DNA of 64,000 bases from Gammaproteobacteria bacterium (GTDB taxonomy: Bacteria > Pseudomonadota > Gammaproteobacteria > Pseudomonadales > Azotimanducaceae): the NCBI GenBank assembly GCA_026706385.1, contig JAPOYV010000011.1, positions 1-64,000 of the forward strand, in the 5' to 3' direction. Below the pieces are notes generated by a model. That model was not told the DNA's origin, did no database searches, and was given only the letters and a program-made list of their open reading frames with translations. Positions 522 through 7,682 of the stretch are shown here, piece by piece. The position numbers were made by a program, and so were the translations under genes. Every line of letters begins with the position of its first letter. Within the stretch, counting starts at the first letter, position 1.

Positions 522-1718
522 TCAGTCCTGCGTCGGCACCCGGATATGCTCGTTCGCGTCCGCCACCTTGTCGGCGTGCTTCTCGAGTTGCTCGAACCCG
601 TAGCGGTTTCGACGAGCCGCGGCGGCAGCGCGGTCCAGCACGGCCGGGTGCAGCGTGTCGTGAACGTCGGGGCAGACGTGGCGGAAGAACGGCTGCACGT
701 CTTCGGGCAGGGCGCTGTACTCGGCTAGCGACAGAGGGCGGCAGACGGTGTTGAAGACGCCGCCGGGCGCGTAGTCGTCCACGGACAGCCACCACGGACA
801 CCAGCGGTTGACCACCGCGACGCGCTTGCGACCGGACGTGTTGTGCATGGCCGAGGCATGCCAAGTGCGCGAGTCCTGGATGAAGACGGAGCCGGCCTTG
901 GCGGTGACCTGCATGTCGCCCGGGATCGGTGCCGTGACGGTGATGCCGTCGCTCGGCCCGCGCGGATTGCGGGGATCGCGATGGGAGCCCGGGACGACCC
1001 ATGTGGCTGCCGAGTCCTCGTCCACATCCGTGAGGTACCAGATCATCACCAGGCACATGGTGACGTCGGGGAACGGTTGGCGGATGCAGCCGGCGTTCTG
1101 AAGCGGCTGGTCCGAACCATAGGCGGACAGGTCGTGGGGCCAGTCCGTGTGCCACTCCCGCGTGTCCGCCCGCCCGCGGTACCTCGCCCGGCCGAAACCG
1201 CCGGGTGCTGCGTCCGAGCCCGCCGCGATCGGGCGCAGATGGAGCTGCGCGATCTTGAGGTGGTCGTCGAGCACGCGGCGCGCCACGCCAGTGATGGCGG
1301 GGTGGGCGAGATACGGCGCATAGCGTGGTAGCCAGATGATGTCATTCGGCGGCTTGGGCGGGCGCCCCATGCGGCCCACGGGGCGCAGTTCGACTCCCGG
1401 CGGCGCCTCTTCGAGTACGGCTTTCATGGTCTCAACGGAAGGACTCCCGTCCACGGCCGCGTCAAGGACTTCCCGGATGGCAGCCATGTTGCGCGAGATG
1501 GACGCTTCCGCGGCATCGACCTCGTCGTGTATCAGCGGCACATCGTCGGGCGCGATAACGTCGTCGAGCACGCAGAAGCCGTACCGGGCTAGCGCTTCCG
1601 CACAGCCAGCAATGGGGTCGGTGGCGGTCTCATGGGCGCTGAACGCATACCCGCGCGTCCGCACGAGTTCGGCGGTGGCAGTGACCGGATCCCCGGAGGC
1701 CGACTTACGCCGGGTCAT
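522..1718 (-). CDS. Phytanoyl-CoA dioxygenase (PhyH) family protein
   Basis: A 398-residue member of the Fe(II)/2-oxoglutarate-dependent PhyH family. An N-terminal helical part contains RYGFCVLDDVI. The iron-binding HxD is HTD inside REWHTDWPHD, followed by the family's PGSH turn (VVPGSHRDPR). The distal histidine lies in SRTWHASAMHN, and an Arg for 2-oxoglutarate follows in RKRVAVVN. The start codon overlaps the 3' end of the PIN-toxin gene by 14 bp, so it is the last gene of an antitoxin-toxin-dioxygenase unit. The substrate cannot be told from sequence. First of six PhyH genes in this window. Confidence 0.9.
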   Translation of the reverse strand: MTRRKSASGDPVTATAELVRTRGYAFSAHETATDPIAGCAEALARYGFCVLDDVIAPDDVPLIHDEVDAAEASISRNMAAIREVLDAAVDGSPSVETMKAVLEEAPPGVELRPVGRMGRPPKPPNDIIWLPRYAPYLAHPAITGVARRVLDDHLKIAQLHLRPIAAGSDAAPGGFGRARYRGRADTREWHTDWPHDLSAYGSDQPLQNAGCIRQPFPDVTMCLVMIWYLTDVDEDSAATWVVPGSHRDPRNPRGPSDGITVTAPIPGDMQVTAKAGSVFIQDSRTWHASAMHNTSGRKRVAVVNRWCPWWLSVDDYAPGGVFNTVCRPLSLAEYSALPEDVQPFFRHVCPDVHDTLHPAVLDRAAAAARRNRYGFEQLEKHADKVADANEHIRVPTQD

Positions 1719-2508: not shown

Positions 2509-2976
2509 TCACTCTCCGTCCGGCGCCATGCCTTTCGTGGCCAATTCGGCGAGCGCTTCGTCGGTCTTCTCGAGGTGCGCGAGCCCCATGCCGCGCAGCA
2601 CGTGGTCGGCCTTCGTGAACTGGATCTTGGTATAGGTCGTGATCTCGACGCGGTTGCCCCAGGGATCGAGGAAGTCCATGAAGCGACCGTCGAGGAACTC
2701 AACGCCCAGTTCCTCGAGACGCGTGCGCGCGAGTTCCTTGTCGTCCACGGCGATCCCGAAGTGGCGGCGGTCGTCCGGTCCTTGCCGGCGCCCGCGAGCG
2801 AAGTTGATGAACTGGTCGCCGAAATAGACGAATGCCGCGGTGTCGCTGCGTCTGGCGATCTCGAAGGTAAGGAACGCGCCGTAGAAGTCCAGGGCGGCAT
2901 CGATGTCGCCCACCTCCAACGCGATGTGATTGATGCCCACGGCGCGCGCTCGCCGCGGTGCCGCGTCGTCGTTCAT
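2509..2976 (-). CDS. VOC family protein (glyoxalase/dioxygenase fold)
   Basis: A 155-residue vicinal-oxygen-chelate protein. Near the N-terminus GINHIALEVGDIDAALDFYG is the first beta-alpha-beta module, with a candidate metal His. The second module holds HFGIAVDDKEL and FLDPWGNRVEI, with a Glu at the end in the metal-ligand position. The start is ATG at 2976 rather than an in-frame ATG at 2991, because AAAGGAGG lies just upstream of 2976. It sits 11 bases after the end of the selenoprotein gene on the same strand and is probably co-transcribed. Substrate unknown. Confidence 0.85.
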   Translation of the reverse strand: MNDDAAPRRARAVGINHIALEVGDIDAALDFYGAFLTFEIARRSDTAAFVYFGDQFINFARGRRQGPDDRRHFGIAVDDKELARTRLEELGVEFLDGRFMDFLDPWGNRVEITTYTKIQFTKADHVLRGMGLAHLEKTDEALAELATKGMAPDGE

Positions 2977-2987
2977 GACTCCTCCTT

Positions 2988-3040
2988 TCATGGAACATCC
3001 GCCATAGGGAGCGCAGCGTCCGTCGGCGGATGTTCCATGA
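2988..3040. repeat. Perfect 16-bp inverted repeat spanning the selenoprotein 3' end
   Basis: Positions 2988-3003 and 3025-3040 are exact reverse complements (16 of 16) around a 21-base loop. The inner loop is itself partly palindromic. The left arm contains the stop codon of the selenoprotein frame, and the downstream VOC Shine-Dalgarno begins immediately after it. It could fold in the mRNA between two co-directional genes as an attenuator or stabiliser, or be the footprint of a small palindromic element. No U-run follows. Confidence 0.8.
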
Positions 3041-4358
3041 TCGACGGCGCTGGGCCGAAGGCGGACCTGCGCACAGCGGAGCGAAGCGCAGGGCCAGCCG
3101 TGGGGCGCTCAATCCGGTCGAATCGGTGCAACTGGCGCCTGGGTACGAGCAGCGCGCTACCGAGCATCTGGTTTTCGCGACCGGCCCGCCCCTGGCAGTG
3201 CTTGCGGACTTCGTTGAGCACGCGGGCCGCCACGGTTTCGCCCCAGAACCACTCCTCCAGCCGGACCGGGTCCGTGGTCCCACCGGGCTGCGCCGTTATG
3301 GCCTCGTTGTAGTAGGCCTTCAAGTCCTCGCTCGCCATTTTCAGTGCGGCACCCAACGAGACGTCGGTCAGCGGATTATCCGGCTCGTCGCCGCGCGCGA
3401 ACCCGGCGATGAAGTCGGCCACGGCCTCGGGGGCCAGACCCGTCGTGTCGGCCGTGGTGCGCCGCCTGCGCCGCACCGCCTCGTCGTACCAGTTGCGCAA
3501 TCCGTCTACCTCGGCGCGAAAGGCGCGGACGAGCTGGTCTTCGGCGTCCATTTCAGCGTCCGGGAAGGAAACGGGGCAAGCCAGCGGCGCCTCAGGCGCG
3601 GCTCCCGCAGGTTCGTCGTCCGGAAAGTCCTCAAGCACCGGGCCTTCGGGGCGTTCCAGCAAGCCAAGAACCGCCTGCAATACGCGGGTCTGGAACGCCC
3701 GGTTGCCGGGCGGACCGAGCGGTCGTCCCAGTTCGAACGGCACCCACAACGCGCGCGGCGGCGCGATCCGTTCGGTATGAAGTCGGATCAGGCTAATCTG
3801 GGTGGTCGCGATGCCTTCCCGCTCCAGGTAGTGGCCGAGCGCGCCGACGGCACGCGTGCAGTTGGGTCAGACAGGAACCAGCAAGGCGGCATCGACGCCG
3901 TCCGCGCGCATGATCCGCGCCAAGTCGCGGGCTTGCGGCTCCAGGGCCAGAACGTCGGTCGCCCCCATGAACGAGTAGTGGTGGCGGGCCAAGCTGCCGA
4001 TGTCGCCCGCCGCACACATGTCACGCAACCTGTCGAGCGGAAACACGACGTTCCAATCCTGCTGAAAGCCGGTGCGGTCGTAGTTGGTCGACATGTGGCT
4101 CATCACCAGATCGGCGGACGGCGTGTCGTCCGGGATCAGCCGGTAGTCCGAGGCACGCAGGACGAAGGGCTTGTCGTCCCGCCGATGGAGACCGGCCGTC
4201 GAGATCAAAGCGACCTTCCGACGGGCCAGCGGCACAGCGTCCACCCAGGGCGAGGAGTCGAACTTCGGACATGCCATGTCGACATAGTGTTTGCGCAATG
4301 CGGGCGTCATGCTGTCGAGGCGGGCCACGTCCGATACTCCCAACGGTTTGTGGAGCAA
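2988..4358 (-). CDS. GrdB/PrdB-like selenoprotein (glycine/sarcosine/betaine reductase selenoprotein B family), UGA read as Sec
   Basis: Read as one 456-residue frame with TGA at 3867-3869 decoded as selenocysteine (residue 164). Upstream, DRTGFQQDWNVVFPLDRL, then GSLARHHYSFMGA, and ADGVDAALLVPV match the GrdB family. Downstream the same frame continues without another stop: PNCTRAVGALGHYLEREGI. This gives U-P-N-C, equivalent to the UGTC redox motif of classical GrdB. The frame is open to 2988. A SECIS-like hairpin lies 12 bases past the UGA and the next base is C, a common recoding context. The start is TTG at 4358 with GGAG about 10 bases upstream; it is uncertain. Classical GrdB works with GrdA in Clostridia; no grdA or prdA is here, so the substrate is unknown. 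Automatic gene callers would split this into two genes or call it a pseudogene. Confidence 0.85.
3839..3855 (-). promoter_or_regulatory. Putative bacterial SECIS hairpin for Sec insertion
   Basis: On the coding strand the bases after the UGA form GCGTGCC, loop GTC, GGCGCGC: seven pairs including one G-U, with G as the first loop base. The loop starts 18 bases after the UGA. Bacterial SECIS elements sit inside the coding sequence just after the UGA, with a small G-containing apical loop about 16-37 bases downstream, so both position and shape fit. It was folded by eye only. Confidence 0.65.
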
Positions 4359-4437: not shown

Positions 4438-5331
4438 ATGAACGACCACGAGAAGTACCTCTTCGACCTTCGCGGCTACATCGTCGTGAGGGACGCGCTC
4501 ACGACCGAACAGGTCGAGGACCTGTCCGAGCGACTTGAGGCGCGCCGCAAGGCCAAGGGCCGCCTGGGGTCCGACCGGACCATCTTCGGGGCGGACGCGA
4601 GCCCGGCCTGGTCGGCGCCGTCGCTGCTGGAATGGGGTGGGACCTATATCGATCTCATTGACCTGCCCGTCATCGCGCCGTATCTCGAGGCGCTGCTCGG
4701 GGTCGGCTACCGGTTGGACCACGACTACATCAACGTCGTGAACGCCGAGCATCCGAGCAAGCTCTATCTGCACGGTGGGGGTCAAGGTGCGGGAGGGCCG
4801 AGGGACGTGGTCGGGCCGACAGACGGCGGCCAGTGCTACTACCGCTACAACAACGGCCAGTTCTTCAACGGCTTGCTCACCGTCGCGTTCGAGCTCAATG
4901 ACGTGACCCCGTCAAGCGGAGGCTTTGCGTGCGTCGCCGGCAGCCACAAGGGGAACTTCGCGCTTCCGGACGAGTGGCGGATCAGCGCGAAGCAGGCCGA
5001 CATCCCAGCCTGCGTGGATCGAGTTACCGCGCGGTCGGGTGACGCGATCATCTTCACGGAGGCGTGCGCCCACGGCACGGTTCCGTGGGGTGGAGGCGGC
5101 GAGCGGCGGACGATCTTCTACAAGTACTGCCCGCACGCCGTGGCCTGGGGGCCGTGCTACTACAACGCCGACCAATACGGCGACCTGACGGAAAACCAAC
5201 GTGCGATTCTGACCCCGCCTAGCGCTTTCGGACCGGCACCGCGCACGGCGGTGATCTGGGAGAGGGCCCAAGCGGAACAGGCCGAGCTGGTCCGGCTGCG
5301 CAAGGAAGTGGCGGAACTGAAGGGAGCCTAA
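4438..5331 (+). CDS. PhyH-family protein with HGG in place of the HxD iron motif
   Basis: A 297-residue PhyH-fold protein. It has FDLRGYIVVRDAL at the N-terminus, the PhyH SGGFACVAGSHKGNF segment at about 159-173, a distal His at 212 (ACAHGTVPW), and the 2-oxoglutarate Arg in GERRTIFYKY. At the proximal site the chain reads YLHGGG (H112, G113, G114), so the aspartate of HxD is absent. The neighbouring paralogue at 5427 has HAD at the same place. Loss of the carboxylate is known from iron halogenases (SyrB2, WelO5), where halide fills the gap. Other PhyH relatives also carry HGG, so function is open. The C-terminus is a short charged coiled coil. Confidence 0.85.
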   Translation: MNDHEKYLFDLRGYIVVRDALTTEQVEDLSERLEARRKAKGRLGSDRTIFGADASPAWSAPSLLEWGGTYIDLIDLPVIAPYLEALLGVGYRLDHDYINVVNAEHPSKLYLHGGGQGAGGPRDVVGPTDGGQCYYRYNNGQFFNGLLTVAFELNDVTPSSGGFACVAGSHKGNFALPDEWRISAKQADIPACVDRVTARSGDAIIFTEACAHGTVPWGGGGERRTIFYKYCPHAVAWGPCYYNADQYGDLTENQRAILTPPSAFGPAPRTAVIWERAQAEQAELVRLRKEVAELKGA

Positions 5332-5337
5332 GCTGGG

Positions 5338-5428
5338 TGCGCGGGCCTCCCGGGCCCGCATAGACGAGGCGATGATGCGGACGAGGACGCCCGCGCACCA
5401 AAGCGGACGGGGACGCCCGCGCACCATC
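5338..5428. repeat. Convergent intergenic hairpin plus a 22-bp direct repeat pair
   Basis: Between two convergent PhyH genes. A GC hairpin GCGGGCC/TCCCG/GGCCCGC lies at 5341-5359 and could act as a terminator in both directions. It is followed by two near-identical 22-base copies at 5379-5400 and 5407-5428 (one mismatch: GGACGAGGACG versus GGACGGGGACG). The hairpin core recurs at 25213-25230. The second direct-repeat copy touches the stop codon of the minus-strand PhyH gene. Confidence 0.7.
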
Positions 5429-6251
5429 AGCTCGCCGCGGCTTCGAATTCCTCCGAGAACAGCGATGGGAAATGCGTGAGCGGCTCTCCGGGATCCGCAA
5501 GAAGCTGGCGCTGCCGCGGGCTCAGTTCGACCCCTTCCGGCGGCGTTACCCGGGTGCTGCCCCAGCTCATGCTGGACACGCAGTACTTGTAGAGCAGCGT
5601 GCGGCGTTCGTAGTCGCCGTCCCATCGCGCGGTGCCGTGGGTGAGCGCCTCGGTGAAGACCAGCAGGCTGCCCGCCGGCGCTTCGACGATCCGCACCCAG
5701 GGACTGTCCTGGTGCGCCGCGTGGATGCCGCGCGGGATGCGGTACGAACTCTTGTGGCTGCCGGGGATGCAGCAGAAGCCGCCCACGTCAGGCCCGGTGT
5801 CGCGAAGGTTCCATGCGCCGACCATGAACCCGGCCATCATGCGGTTGTCGCGGAAGGCGAAGAACTCGCCCGGTCCGGTGGTGGCATTCGGCGAACTTGC
5901 CCCGTAGTCCGCGTGCAGACGTCCCGCAGGCGATCCCTTGCGCATGTACATGCCGTAGAGGCGTTCGAGCCGGAAGGCTTCGCCAAGGCGGAAACGCAGG
6001 ATCGGCAGCAGGGCTGGGTGGTCCATCAAGCGAGCGAACGGTTCGCCCCACTGCAGGAAGCCCGGCCCGGTCTGCCGAACTGCACCGGCGGCGGAACCGA
6101 AGCGTGGGAAGTTGTCCGCCGGTGCGGGCAGTTCCTGGGCGTCGATTAAGGCGTTGAGTTCGGCGACTTCGGCTGCGCTCAACACGTCCTCGATCACCAG
6201 GTAGCCGTTCAGATCGAAAAGGTACTGCAGTTCCTCGAGTTCCGCGTCCAC
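5427..6251 (-). CDS. Phytanoyl-CoA dioxygenase (PhyH) family protein
   Basis: A 274-residue PhyH enzyme with an intact facial triad: H113 and D115 in RLHADYGA and the distal His at 205 in EALTHGTARW. It also has GGFCCIPGSHKSSY and the Arg-bearing YERRTLLYKY. It is clearly the same subfamily as the HGG protein at 4438, sharing the SHK, THGT and RRT-YKY blocks. The GTG start at 6251 is supported by AAGGAGG just upstream. It is the last gene of the operon that starts with the amidohydrolase at 9926, 10 bases behind the GST gene. Confidence 0.9.
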   Translation of the reverse strand: MDAELEELQYLFDLNGYLVIEDVLSAAEVAELNALIDAQELPAPADNFPRFGSAAGAVRQTGPGFLQWGEPFARLMDHPALLPILRFRLGEAFRLERLYGMYMRKGSPAGRLHADYGASSPNATTGPGEFFAFRDNRMMAGFMVGAWNLRDTGPDVGGFCCIPGSHKSSYRIPRGIHAAHQDSPWVRIVEAPAGSLLVFTEALTHGTARWDGDYERRTLLYKYCVSSMSWGSTRVTPPEGVELSPRQRQLLADPGEPLTHFPSLFSEEFEAAAS

Positions 6252-6261
6252 GATCCCTCCT

Positions 6262-6882
6262 TCAGCCCGCGTCCTGGGCCATCTGAAATCCCGGCCGCGA
6301 GCTCAGTCGGCCGAAATAGGCTTGCGTCCGCGGGTAGTCGTCCGTCAGCAGGCCGAAGTTCGACGCCAGTAGCAACGAGTATCCGGTCATGATGTCGGCA
6401 TAGGTGAACGAATCGCCCACGAGATAAGGCGAGTCGGCGAGGGCATCCTCGATCGCGGCGATGCAGATGCGCGCGCGATCCTTGCAGTCCTCGATGACGA
6501 ACTCGACCACACCGCCTTCCGGCGCCACCCGGTTGTGGTTGACGATCTCGCCCACGGGTCGCGCAAAGGTGGCTTCCGCGAACCAGGACCATTGCCGGCA
6601 GAGGGCGCTTTCCGGCGTGCCGGGCTCGGGCGCCAGCCGACCTTCGCCGTAGCGTTCGAGCAGGAAGTCCACCATGGCCCCGGACTCGAACATGGTCACC
6701 TCGTCGTGGACCATGACGGGGACCTTGCCCGTCGGGCTCTTGCTGCGCCACTCGGCACTGGTCCGGAAGGCCGGCGAGAAGTCGATCACCTCCACGCGAT
6801 ACGGCAGGTCGAGTTCCTCGCAGAGCCAGATCGCACGGAAACCGCGCGTCCCCTTGACATGGTAAATCGTCGGCGTCGTCAT
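6262..6882 (-). CDS. Glutathione S-transferase family protein
   Basis: A 206-residue protein with the thioredoxin-like N-terminal domain (TIYHVKGTRGFRAIWLCEEL, then KVPVMV and the glutathione gamma-Glu contact FESGAM) and an all-alpha C-terminal domain containing GDSFTYADIMTGYSL, the usual N-capping box region. ATG at 6882 is chosen; the frame extends upstream only as a shadow of the enoyl-CoA hydratase. It lies 11 bases after that gene in an operon with CaiB, hydratase and PhyH, which suggests a role in handling an electrophilic or CoA-linked intermediate. That role is inference. Confidence 0.88.
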   Translation of the reverse strand: MTTPTIYHVKGTRGFRAIWLCEELDLPYRVEVIDFSPAFRTSAEWRSKSPTGKVPVMVHDEVTMFESGAMVDFLLERYGEGRLAPEPGTPESALCRQWSWFAEATFARPVGEIVNHNRVAPEGGVVEFVIEDCKDRARICIAAIEDALADSPYLVGDSFTYADIMTGYSLLLASNFGLLTDDYPRTQAYFGRLSSRPGFQMAQDAG

Positions 6883-6893
6883 CGTCGAAGTCC

Positions 6894-7682
6894 CTACTGG
6901 TTGAAGTTCGGTTCGCGCTTGGCCAGGAACGCCGACACGGCCTCGGCATGGTCCGGCAGCCGACGGGCGATCTGGTCGCGCAAGCCTTCCCGCTCCATGA
7001 CCGCGTCGAGGTCGTCCTCCATCGGGTTCTTGCGCAGCAGTTCCTTGATCATCATCACCGCGCGCGTCGGATTGTTGGCGATCTCGTCGGCCTTGGCGAG
7101 CGCCGTCGGCATCAACTCGTCGGGCTCCGTCACCGCGGTCACCAAGCCCATGCGGTGCGCTTCGTCGGCGGGCACCATGCGACCGGTCAGGCACATGTCC
7201 GTCGCGTTGCCGAGGCCGATGAGCTGCGCGAGCAGGTGCGTCGAGCCGAGTTCCGGCATCAGGCCCATCTTGATGAAGCGGATGCTCAAGTTGGCGTTGG
7301 TCGAGGCGATGCGGACGTCGCAGGGCAGGATCATGGTCAGCCCGACACCCACGGCGTAGCCGTTGATCGCGGCGATCGTCGGCTTGGAGCTGCGGATCGT
7401 GTGGGTCATGTTGTGGCCGCCGCGGGCGAGCGACTCTCCCTCGCCCTTCTTGTTGGTCTCGACGCGTTCCGCGAAGTTGCCGATGTCGGCACCGGCGCAA
7501 AAGGCCCGGCCTTCACCGGTGAAGACGATCGCACCGATGGCGTCGTCCGCGTTCCACGCCGCAAGCTGGTCGACGATCTCCCTCGACATCGTGTCGGTCC
7601 ACGCGTTCAGCCGGTGCGGCCGGTTCAGGCGGATGATGCCGACCCGGCCCTGGGTTTCAGTCAGAATCTCTTCGTAAGCCAT
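6894..7682 (-). CDS. Enoyl-CoA hydratase/isomerase family protein
   Basis: A 262-residue crotonase-fold protein. It has RLNRPHRLNAW at the start, the CoA/oxyanion-hole segment RAFCAGADIG, a second oxyanion segment INGYAVGVG, and MGLMPELGSTHLL, where the Glu falls at the position of the hydratase catalytic Glu. AAGGAG precedes the ATG. Members hydrate or isomerise enoyl-CoA thioesters in the cytoplasm. The upstream CaiB CoA transferase would supply a CoA thioester, so a short catabolic pathway is likely. Confidence 0.92.
   Translation of the reverse strand: MAYEEILTETQGRVGIIRLNRPHRLNAWTDTMSREIVDQLAAWNADDAIGAIVFTGEGRAFCAGADIGNFAERVETNKKGEGESLARGGHNMTHTIRSSKPTIAAINGYAVGVGLTMILPCDVRIASTNANLSIRFIKMGLMPELGSTHLLAQLIGLGNATDMCLTGRMVPADEAHRMGLVTAVTEPDELMPTALAKADEIANNPTRAVMMIKELLRKNPMEDDLDAVMEREGLRDQIARRLPDHAEAVSAFLAKREPNFNQ

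What the first reader, a model, noticed from the sequence alone, without database searches (positions are those of the whole stretch)
2988..4358. A GrdB-like selenoprotein hidden behind an in-frame UGA
Two adjacent minus-strand frames (4358-3867 and 3866-2988) are the same frame, broken only by one TGA. The family sequence runs straight through it, giving VPV-U-P-N-C-T-R, which lines up with the UGTC redox motif of clostridial GrdB/PrdB. The base after TGA is C, and a seven-pair hairpin with a GTC loop begins 12 bases downstream. Finding a GrdB-type protein without grdA or prdA in a probable gammaproteobacterium suggests a divergent oxygen-tolerant use of this selenoenzyme fold.
Basis: partly seen in the sequence, partly recalled or inferred. 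Interest (0 to 1): 0.87.

Follow-up and report, generated by a model that had tools for sequence, protein, structure and literature searches.

The report
Selenium enzyme without its usual partner
A gene that looks broken by a stop signal is really one intact gene for a selenium-containing enzyme; it belongs to a widespread but little-studied branch of the bacterial amino-acid reductases that lacks the usual partner protein and carries an extra domain.

Summary
Window 4328-2988(-) is one gene with a single in-frame UGA (3867-3869), read as selenocysteine. Its genome has tRNA-Sec, selB, selA and selD and five PrdB/GrdB-like genes, each with TGA at the same site. Of 118 related sites read, 118 are TGA. 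A hairpin with a G-U loop follows at fixed distance and exceeds synonymous shuffles. Among 21 matches in a wider scan, 15 distant short homologues have Cys there and six TGA.

The protein is not a D-proline or glycine reductase subunit as known: 102 bits against a PrdB cut-off of 300, outside the PrdB and GrdB clades, motif U-P-x-C instead of U-G-T-C, an extra helical domain without clear match in Pfam or the PDB, and no pyruvoyl partner (PF09338) in its genome, nor in 36 of 37 genomes of its family, own included.

Sec "PrdB" proteins are already known from marine metagenomes (PMC1088965, PMC2398784); I found no description of the long, partner-free branch in eight paper searches. Best guess: a Sec/Cys reductase that cleaves a C-X bond without a pyruvoyl group. 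Substrate unknown; dehalogenation is a weak lead.

The parts
2988..4328 (-). Selenoprotein gene (446 residues, Sec154), proposed start GTG 4328; TTG 4358 is the longer alternative
3867..3869 (-). In-frame UGA read as selenocysteine
   Evidence: 118 of 118 sites TGA; Cys at this site in distant short homologues
3839..3855 (-). SECIS-type hairpin: 7 pairs, loop GUC
3858..3860 (-). Cys157, partner cysteine of the U-P-N-C motif (nearly invariant)
3606..4223 (-). Sec domain, residues about 36-241 (Rossmann-like), matching PrdB and the C-terminal part of GrdB
3150..3545 (-). All-helical C-terminal domain, residues about 262-393, of the long branch; no Pfam family matched
2987..3113 (-). Stretch without counterpart in L062; its last ~53 bases are a palindrome and it supplies the last ~40 residues and the stop
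   Evidence: pLDDT under 50 for residues 412-446
2509..2976 (-). VOC/glyoxalase-fold gene directly downstream, same strand, kept in the window's clade (start ATG 2976 by analogy with L062; the listed ORF starts at 2991)
6262..6885 (-). Glutathione S-transferase gene (approximate start; inside ORF 6262-7500) near the selenoprotein gene in five of seven loci of the window's clade

Best explanation
The gene encodes a true selenoprotein of the PrdB/GrdB superfamily, belonging to a separate long branch that works without the known pyruvoyl subunit. Translation: UGA 3867-3869 is decoded by SelB/tRNA-Sec with the help of the hairpin just downstream (shown by comparison, about 0.97). Identity: a distinct branch, not PrdB or GrdB (shown, about 0.9). 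Chemistry (inferred, about 0.45): Sec154, at the start of a helix, attacks an activated carbon of a small substrate and expels its leaving group; Cys157 then releases the product in reduced form with a Se-S bond, which a cellular thiol system resets. In PrdB and GrdB a pyruvoyl group activates the C-N bond (recalled); here the substrate must carry its own activation, for example a carbonyl, CoA ester, halide or glutathione thioether next to the leaving group. The C-terminal helical domain probably shapes the substrate site or holds subunits together (guess).
For: sel genes and tRNA-Sec in the genome; 118 of 118 sites TGA, 113 of 114 distinct contexts with C after it; hairpin 6.37 of 7 pairs against 3.98 in synonymous shuffles, n 117, folding z -1.45 against -0.35 to +0.06 at five control offsets; loop GU in 111 of 114 and changes on both sides of pairs; Cys at the same site in 15 of the 21 matches; purifying selection on both sides. 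Tree: the long branch is one clade, 100/100, with 96 long rows plus two cut or broken ones, apart from PrdB and GrdB. PF09338 detects PrdA in 4 of 4 positive controls and is absent from 36 of 37 family genomes, own included; the one positive, G030, has it beside a separate weak GrdB-like match. Invariant in 53 aligned sequences: U154, P155, D91, P97, E169, P191, R192, F198, G201, G205, Q213; nearly invariant C157.
Against: No substrate, product or electron donor is known. No neighbour gene is conserved across the branch (best cluster 11 of 84 loci). No clear structural relative in the PDB shows an active site. Two Chloroflexi genomes with the long form (G062, G066) do hold PF09338 genes; whether these serve the long form is unknown. 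A pyruvoyl protein unlike PF09338 cannot be excluded. Of the seven hairpin pairs, two are weak (80 and 87 of 109), and the hairpin folded best at another distance in 9 of 114. No experimental Sec detection.
Confidence: 0.6

Rival explanations
1. A general thiol/peroxide oxidoreductase: the U-x-x-C pair cycles between selenol and Se-S to reduce disulfides or peroxides, like Sec thioredoxin- or peroxiredoxin-type proteins, and does no C-X cleavage.
For: U-x-x-C is the motif of many redox selenoproteins in the tables of PMC1088965 and PMC2398784 (passages read); aerobic setting likely; no fixed operon.
Against: Homology is to carbon-heteroatom reductases; many invariant residues away from the motif and a conserved extra domain suggest a specific substrate; up to six matches in one genome (some of them fragments) suggest substrate diversification.
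Confidence: 0.25
2. A pyruvoyl-free reductive dehalogenase or deglutathionylase for alpha-halo or glutathione-conjugated carbonyl compounds, comparable in chemistry to the proposed GrdB-like fluoroacetate reductase FarB of Synergistota.
For: Haloacid dehalogenase type II genes lie in 5 of 50 long-branch loci against 0.27 expected from 84 copies in those genomes; DehI-like genes flank the gene in L120 and L137; deiodinase-like genes lie near it in four Chloroflexi/Desulfobacterales loci, T4_deiodinase over its cut-off in the one scanned, L106; in the window's clade a VOC gene follows directly and a GST gene lies nearby in five of seven loci; FarB precedent (PMC10838667, passages read).
Against: The dehalogenase test was chosen after seeing the families of 70 neighbours; one of the five is under the family cut-off (L137, 119.7 against 125.4), two come from one family (L088, L097 by title), and the other 45 loci and the window lack it. 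DehI is barely over its cut-off in L120 (29.7 against 28.9) and under it in L137 (26.5).
Confidence: 0.15
3. A true D-proline or glycine/betaine/sarcosine reductase subunit.
For: Published surveys file such proteins as PrdB (PMC1088965, PMC2398784; passages read); the PF07355 cut-off is met.
Against: TIGR04483 102 bits against cut-off 300; outside the PrdB clade; no PF09338 partner; motif U-P-x-C.
Confidence: 0.03
4. A pseudogene, sequencing error, or reassigned TGA codon rather than Sec.
For: A single TGA splits the frame.
Against: 118 of 118 sites TGA; purifying selection after the TGA; TGA ends 56 of 115 of the same genes and 8 of 12 ordinary own genes, so it is still a stop; full Sec machinery.
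Confidence: 0.01

Closest known systems
D-proline reductase subunit PrdB (TIGR04483)
   Same: Sec domain with Sec and a Cys three residues on at the same place
   Different: Motif U-G-T-C-H-R; about 240 residues; PrdA (pyruvoyl) next to it or fused to it in the four loci looked at; separate clade
Glycine/betaine/sarcosine reductase subunit B (GrdB, GrdH, GrdF; PF07355)
   Same: Homologous Sec domain, PF07355 cut-off met
   Different: GrdB has an N-terminal half that is missing here and Sec at about residue 360; motif U-G-T-C-T-R in the seven read; partner GrdE (PF09338)
Marine 'PrdB' selenoproteins of the Sargasso Sea and GOS surveys (42 and 235 Sec genes)
   Same: U-x-x-C, pfam07355 in the GOS table, marine; probably this superfamily
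   Different: In the passages read no domain structure, partner analysis or separate branch is given; their sequences were not compared here
FarB, GrdB-like protein of fluoroacetate-degrading Synergistota (PMC10838667)
   Same: GrdB-type Sec protein proposed to attack a C-halogen bond
   Different: Anaerobes; said to lack the conserved CxxC; still paired with a GrdE-like FarE, though without the pyruvoyl cysteines; sequence not compared here

Membership tests
Bacterial selenoprotein (UGA-encoded Sec) | In-frame UGA conserved at one site | tested here: met
   118 of 118 related sites TGA
Bacterial selenoprotein (UGA-encoded Sec) | SECIS hairpin just downstream, G in the loop | tested here: met
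   the loop rule itself is recalled
Bacterial selenoprotein (UGA-encoded Sec) | selA, selB, selD, tRNA-Sec in the genome | tested here: met
   each over its family cut-off
Bacterial selenoprotein (UGA-encoded Sec) | Cys in homologues at the Sec site | tested here: met
   15 of 21 matches, short forms; none seen in the long-branch loci read
Bacterial selenoprotein (UGA-encoded Sec) | Selenium in the protein (75Se, mass spectrometry) | not testable with these tools
   none
Pfam GRDB superfamily (PF07355) | Score over the gathering cut-off | tested here: met
   37.4 bits against 22
D-proline reductase PrdB (TIGR04483 equivalog) | Score over 300 bits | tested here: not met
   102 bits
D-proline reductase PrdB (TIGR04483 equivalog) | PrdA pyruvoyl subunit encoded in the genome | tested here: not met
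   PF09338 has no match in G000; the model finds PrdA in 4 of 4 controls
D-proline reductase PrdB (TIGR04483 equivalog) | Lies in the PrdB clade | tested here: not met
Glycine/betaine/sarcosine reductase selenoprotein B (TIGR01918) | Score over 65.45 bits and full-length GrdB architecture | tested here: not met
   50.9 bits, profile positions 204-398 of 431 matched
Glycine reductase system | grdA (PF04723) encoded | not tested
   no search made
Known fold for the C-terminal domain | Clear match among solved structures | tested here: inconclusive

The most novel reading that the evidence does not exclude
A large branch of Sec enzymes, Sec in every member read so far, spread over aerobic and anaerobic phyla, that carries out pyruvoyl-free reductive cleavage of carbon-halogen or carbon-sulfur bonds with a Sec/Cys pair and a helical domain of new fold, and has been filed for two decades as proline reductase.
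Probability: 0.2. Interest if true: 0.82.

Novelty: new variant of a known kind. Interest (0 to 1): 0.58.

Why it matters
Proteins of this kind are among the most abundant selenoproteins in ocean surveys, yet are filed as D-proline reductase, a fermentation enzyme that needs PrdA. The present result says that at least one large branch is unlikely to be that enzyme in its known form, shows the features that tell the branches apart (partner, motif, extra domain, clade), and points to a cultured organism (Reyranella soli, L124) in which the question can be tested. Ordinary gene finding splits such genes at the UGA, so they are easily missed.

Full report
OBSERVATION. On the minus strand, 4358-2988 is one open frame with a single TGA. 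The codon lies at 3867-3869. By itself it is not unusual for its composition (z -0.12), so comparison has to decide.

SELENOCYSTEINE. The window lies in an unnamed 5.1-Mb genome of 134 contigs, 98% complete. It holds selA (537 bits), selB (374 bits) and tRNA-Sec (69 bits) side by side on contig C84, and selD (250 bits) on C3, each over its family cut-off. It has five PrdB/GrdB-like genes: C77 (the window), C84, C112, C96 and C101, each with TGA at the same site. Of 58 genomes searched, own included, 37 have matches: 36 of 37 in the window's family and 1 of 21 elsewhere in the order. Every listed match holds a TGA except three fragments behind the site; the exact place was read only in the loci laid out. 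From the loci L001-L004 and L029-L138 I read 118 sites; 118 are TGA, and 113 of 114 distinct contexts go on with C.

SECIS. With amino acids held fixed and codons redrawn from each gene's own usage, the seven-pair register keeps 3.98 pairs on average; the real sequences keep 6.37 (n 117), and their folding z is -1.45 against -0.35 to +0.06 at five control positions in the same genes. The loop begins with GU in 111 of 114 sequences and 109 of 114 form at least five of seven pairs. Several pairs change on both sides (G-C, A-T, T-A at pair 3; C-G, G-C, T-A, A-T at pair 4). Two pairs are weaker (80 and 87 of 109), and in 9 of 114 the best fold puts the loop elsewhere. Sequences are related, so these counts are not independent events. 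TGA is still an ordinary stop: it ends 56 of 115 of the same genes and 8 of 12 ordinary own genes. More distant short homologues have Cys at the site: 15 of the 21 matches found in 398 genomes of the phylum, the other six being TGA. Whether those Cys genomes lack sel genes was not tested. dN/dS is 0.08-0.25 on both sides of the TGA.

WHAT FAMILY. Pfam GRDB is met (37.4 bits against 22). NCBIfam PrdB is the best model, 102 bits over residues 42-235, far below its cut-off of 300. To compare with true PrdB I searched 119 genomes of the phylum of L073: 43 have a match, 9 over the cut-off. The nine PrdB loci read have TAG-U-GTC-HRSA(V), the seven GrdB-type loci U-GTC-TR. In a tree of 136 rows the long form is one clade (100/100: 96 long rows, L129 cut by its contig end, L135 with a broken frame), apart from PrdB (100/100) and GrdB (100/100); most short forms group nearer to PrdB (98/83). 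The tool warns of long branches, so the exact join of the groups is unsure.

PARTNER. PrdA and GrdE carry the pyruvoyl group (recalled). PF09338 finds PrdA in 4 of 4 controls taken beside or fused to PrdB. In 60 genomes (37 of the family, G057, 22 of long-branch loci) it has a match in 4, three over the cut-off: one of the 37 family genomes (G030, beside a separate weak GrdB-like match) and the Chloroflexi genomes G062 and G066. The window's genome has none. The window's protein therefore has no known pyruvoyl subunit to work with. grdA was not searched.

DISTRIBUTION AND CONTEXT. The best 80 of 339 relatives come from Gammaproteobacteria, Betaproteobacteria, Alphaproteobacteria (including Reyranella soli), Desulfobacterota, Chloroflexi including SAR202 and Dehalococcoidia, SAR324 and others (record titles). 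No neighbour is general. In the window's clade a VOC gene follows directly in seven of seven distinct loci (WIN, L059, L060, L062 = L197, L198, L199, L200), and a GST gene lies within 2.5 kb in five of the seven (Pfam GST in the window and L199). Among 70 close same-strand neighbours of the branch no Pfam family recurs more than four times. Haloacid dehalogenase type II lies in 5 of 50 loci (L088, L097, L118, L120, L137) against 0.27 expected; this test was chosen after seeing the neighbours, one member is under the cut-off, and two come from one family. In L120 and L137 a DehI-like gene stands on the other side, just over its cut-off in L120 and under it in L137. Deiodinase-like genes lie near the gene in L077, L078, L106 and L080. 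Short forms of one genus (Cys; L188, L189, L194, L196) and one Sec short form (L192) sit beside a CoA-transferase III gene. The own genome has two heme-copper oxidase genes.

HOW IT MAY WORK. The U-x-x-C pair and the homology to PrdB suggest that the selenolate takes a carbon from its leaving group and that Cys157 frees the reduced product. Without a pyruvoyl group the substrate must bring its own activation. Halides, CoA esters and glutathione conjugates fit the scattered neighbours, but none is shown. The fluoroacetate system of Synergistota, where a GrdB-like Sec protein is proposed to attack C-F (PMC10838667, passages read), is the nearest precedent.

PRIOR ART. Sec PrdB with U-x-x-C is listed with 42 genes in the Sargasso Sea (PMC1088965) and 235 Sec and 110 Cys genes in GOS (PMC2398784) (passages read); a 2006 survey lists 'proline reductase' in Anaeromyxobacter and Geobacter, besides clostridia (PMC1794560, passages read); two reviews keep PrdB as D-proline reductase (PMC13188914, PMC9312934, passages read). 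Eight paper searches showed no paper on a long, partner-free branch; only the listings and the passages named were seen. I therefore call it a new variant of a known kind.

Noticed in passing
window 2987-3113: 127 bp absent from the 89%-identical relative L062, ending in a ~53-base palindrome; it replaces the gene's natural end and lengthens the protein by about 40 residues. Perhaps a small mobile repeat.
   Followed up: partly
window 522-1718, 4438-5331, 5427-6251: Three phytanoyl-CoA dioxygenase (PhyH) genes within 6 kb around the selenoprotein gene.
   Followed up: no
L188, L189, L192, L194, L196: Short PrdB-like genes (Cys form, and Sec form in L192) next to a CoA-transferase III gene; hints at a CoA-linked pathway.
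   Followed up: partly
L152:235-1929 (perhaps also L153): PrdA and PrdB in one frame of about 650 residues: a natural PrdA-PrdB fusion selenoprotein.
   Followed up: partly
G066 (genome of L085, SAR202): Eight PF09338 matches in one Chloroflexi genome, some of them partial: an expansion of pyruvoyl-type subunits.
   Followed up: no
L106:5487-5927, also L077, L078, L080: Iodothyronine-deiodinase-like protein near the long-form gene in four loci; Pfam T4_deiodinase over its cut-off in L106.
   Followed up: partly
L024 (own contig C84) and L128: A long-form copy lies about 5 kb from the tRNA-Sec/selB/selA cluster in the own genome and near selB/selA in a Burkholderiales record.
   Followed up: no
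G000:C3:86502-87407: The selD match lies inside an open frame of 783 residues, so SelD is probably fused to another domain.
   Followed up: no
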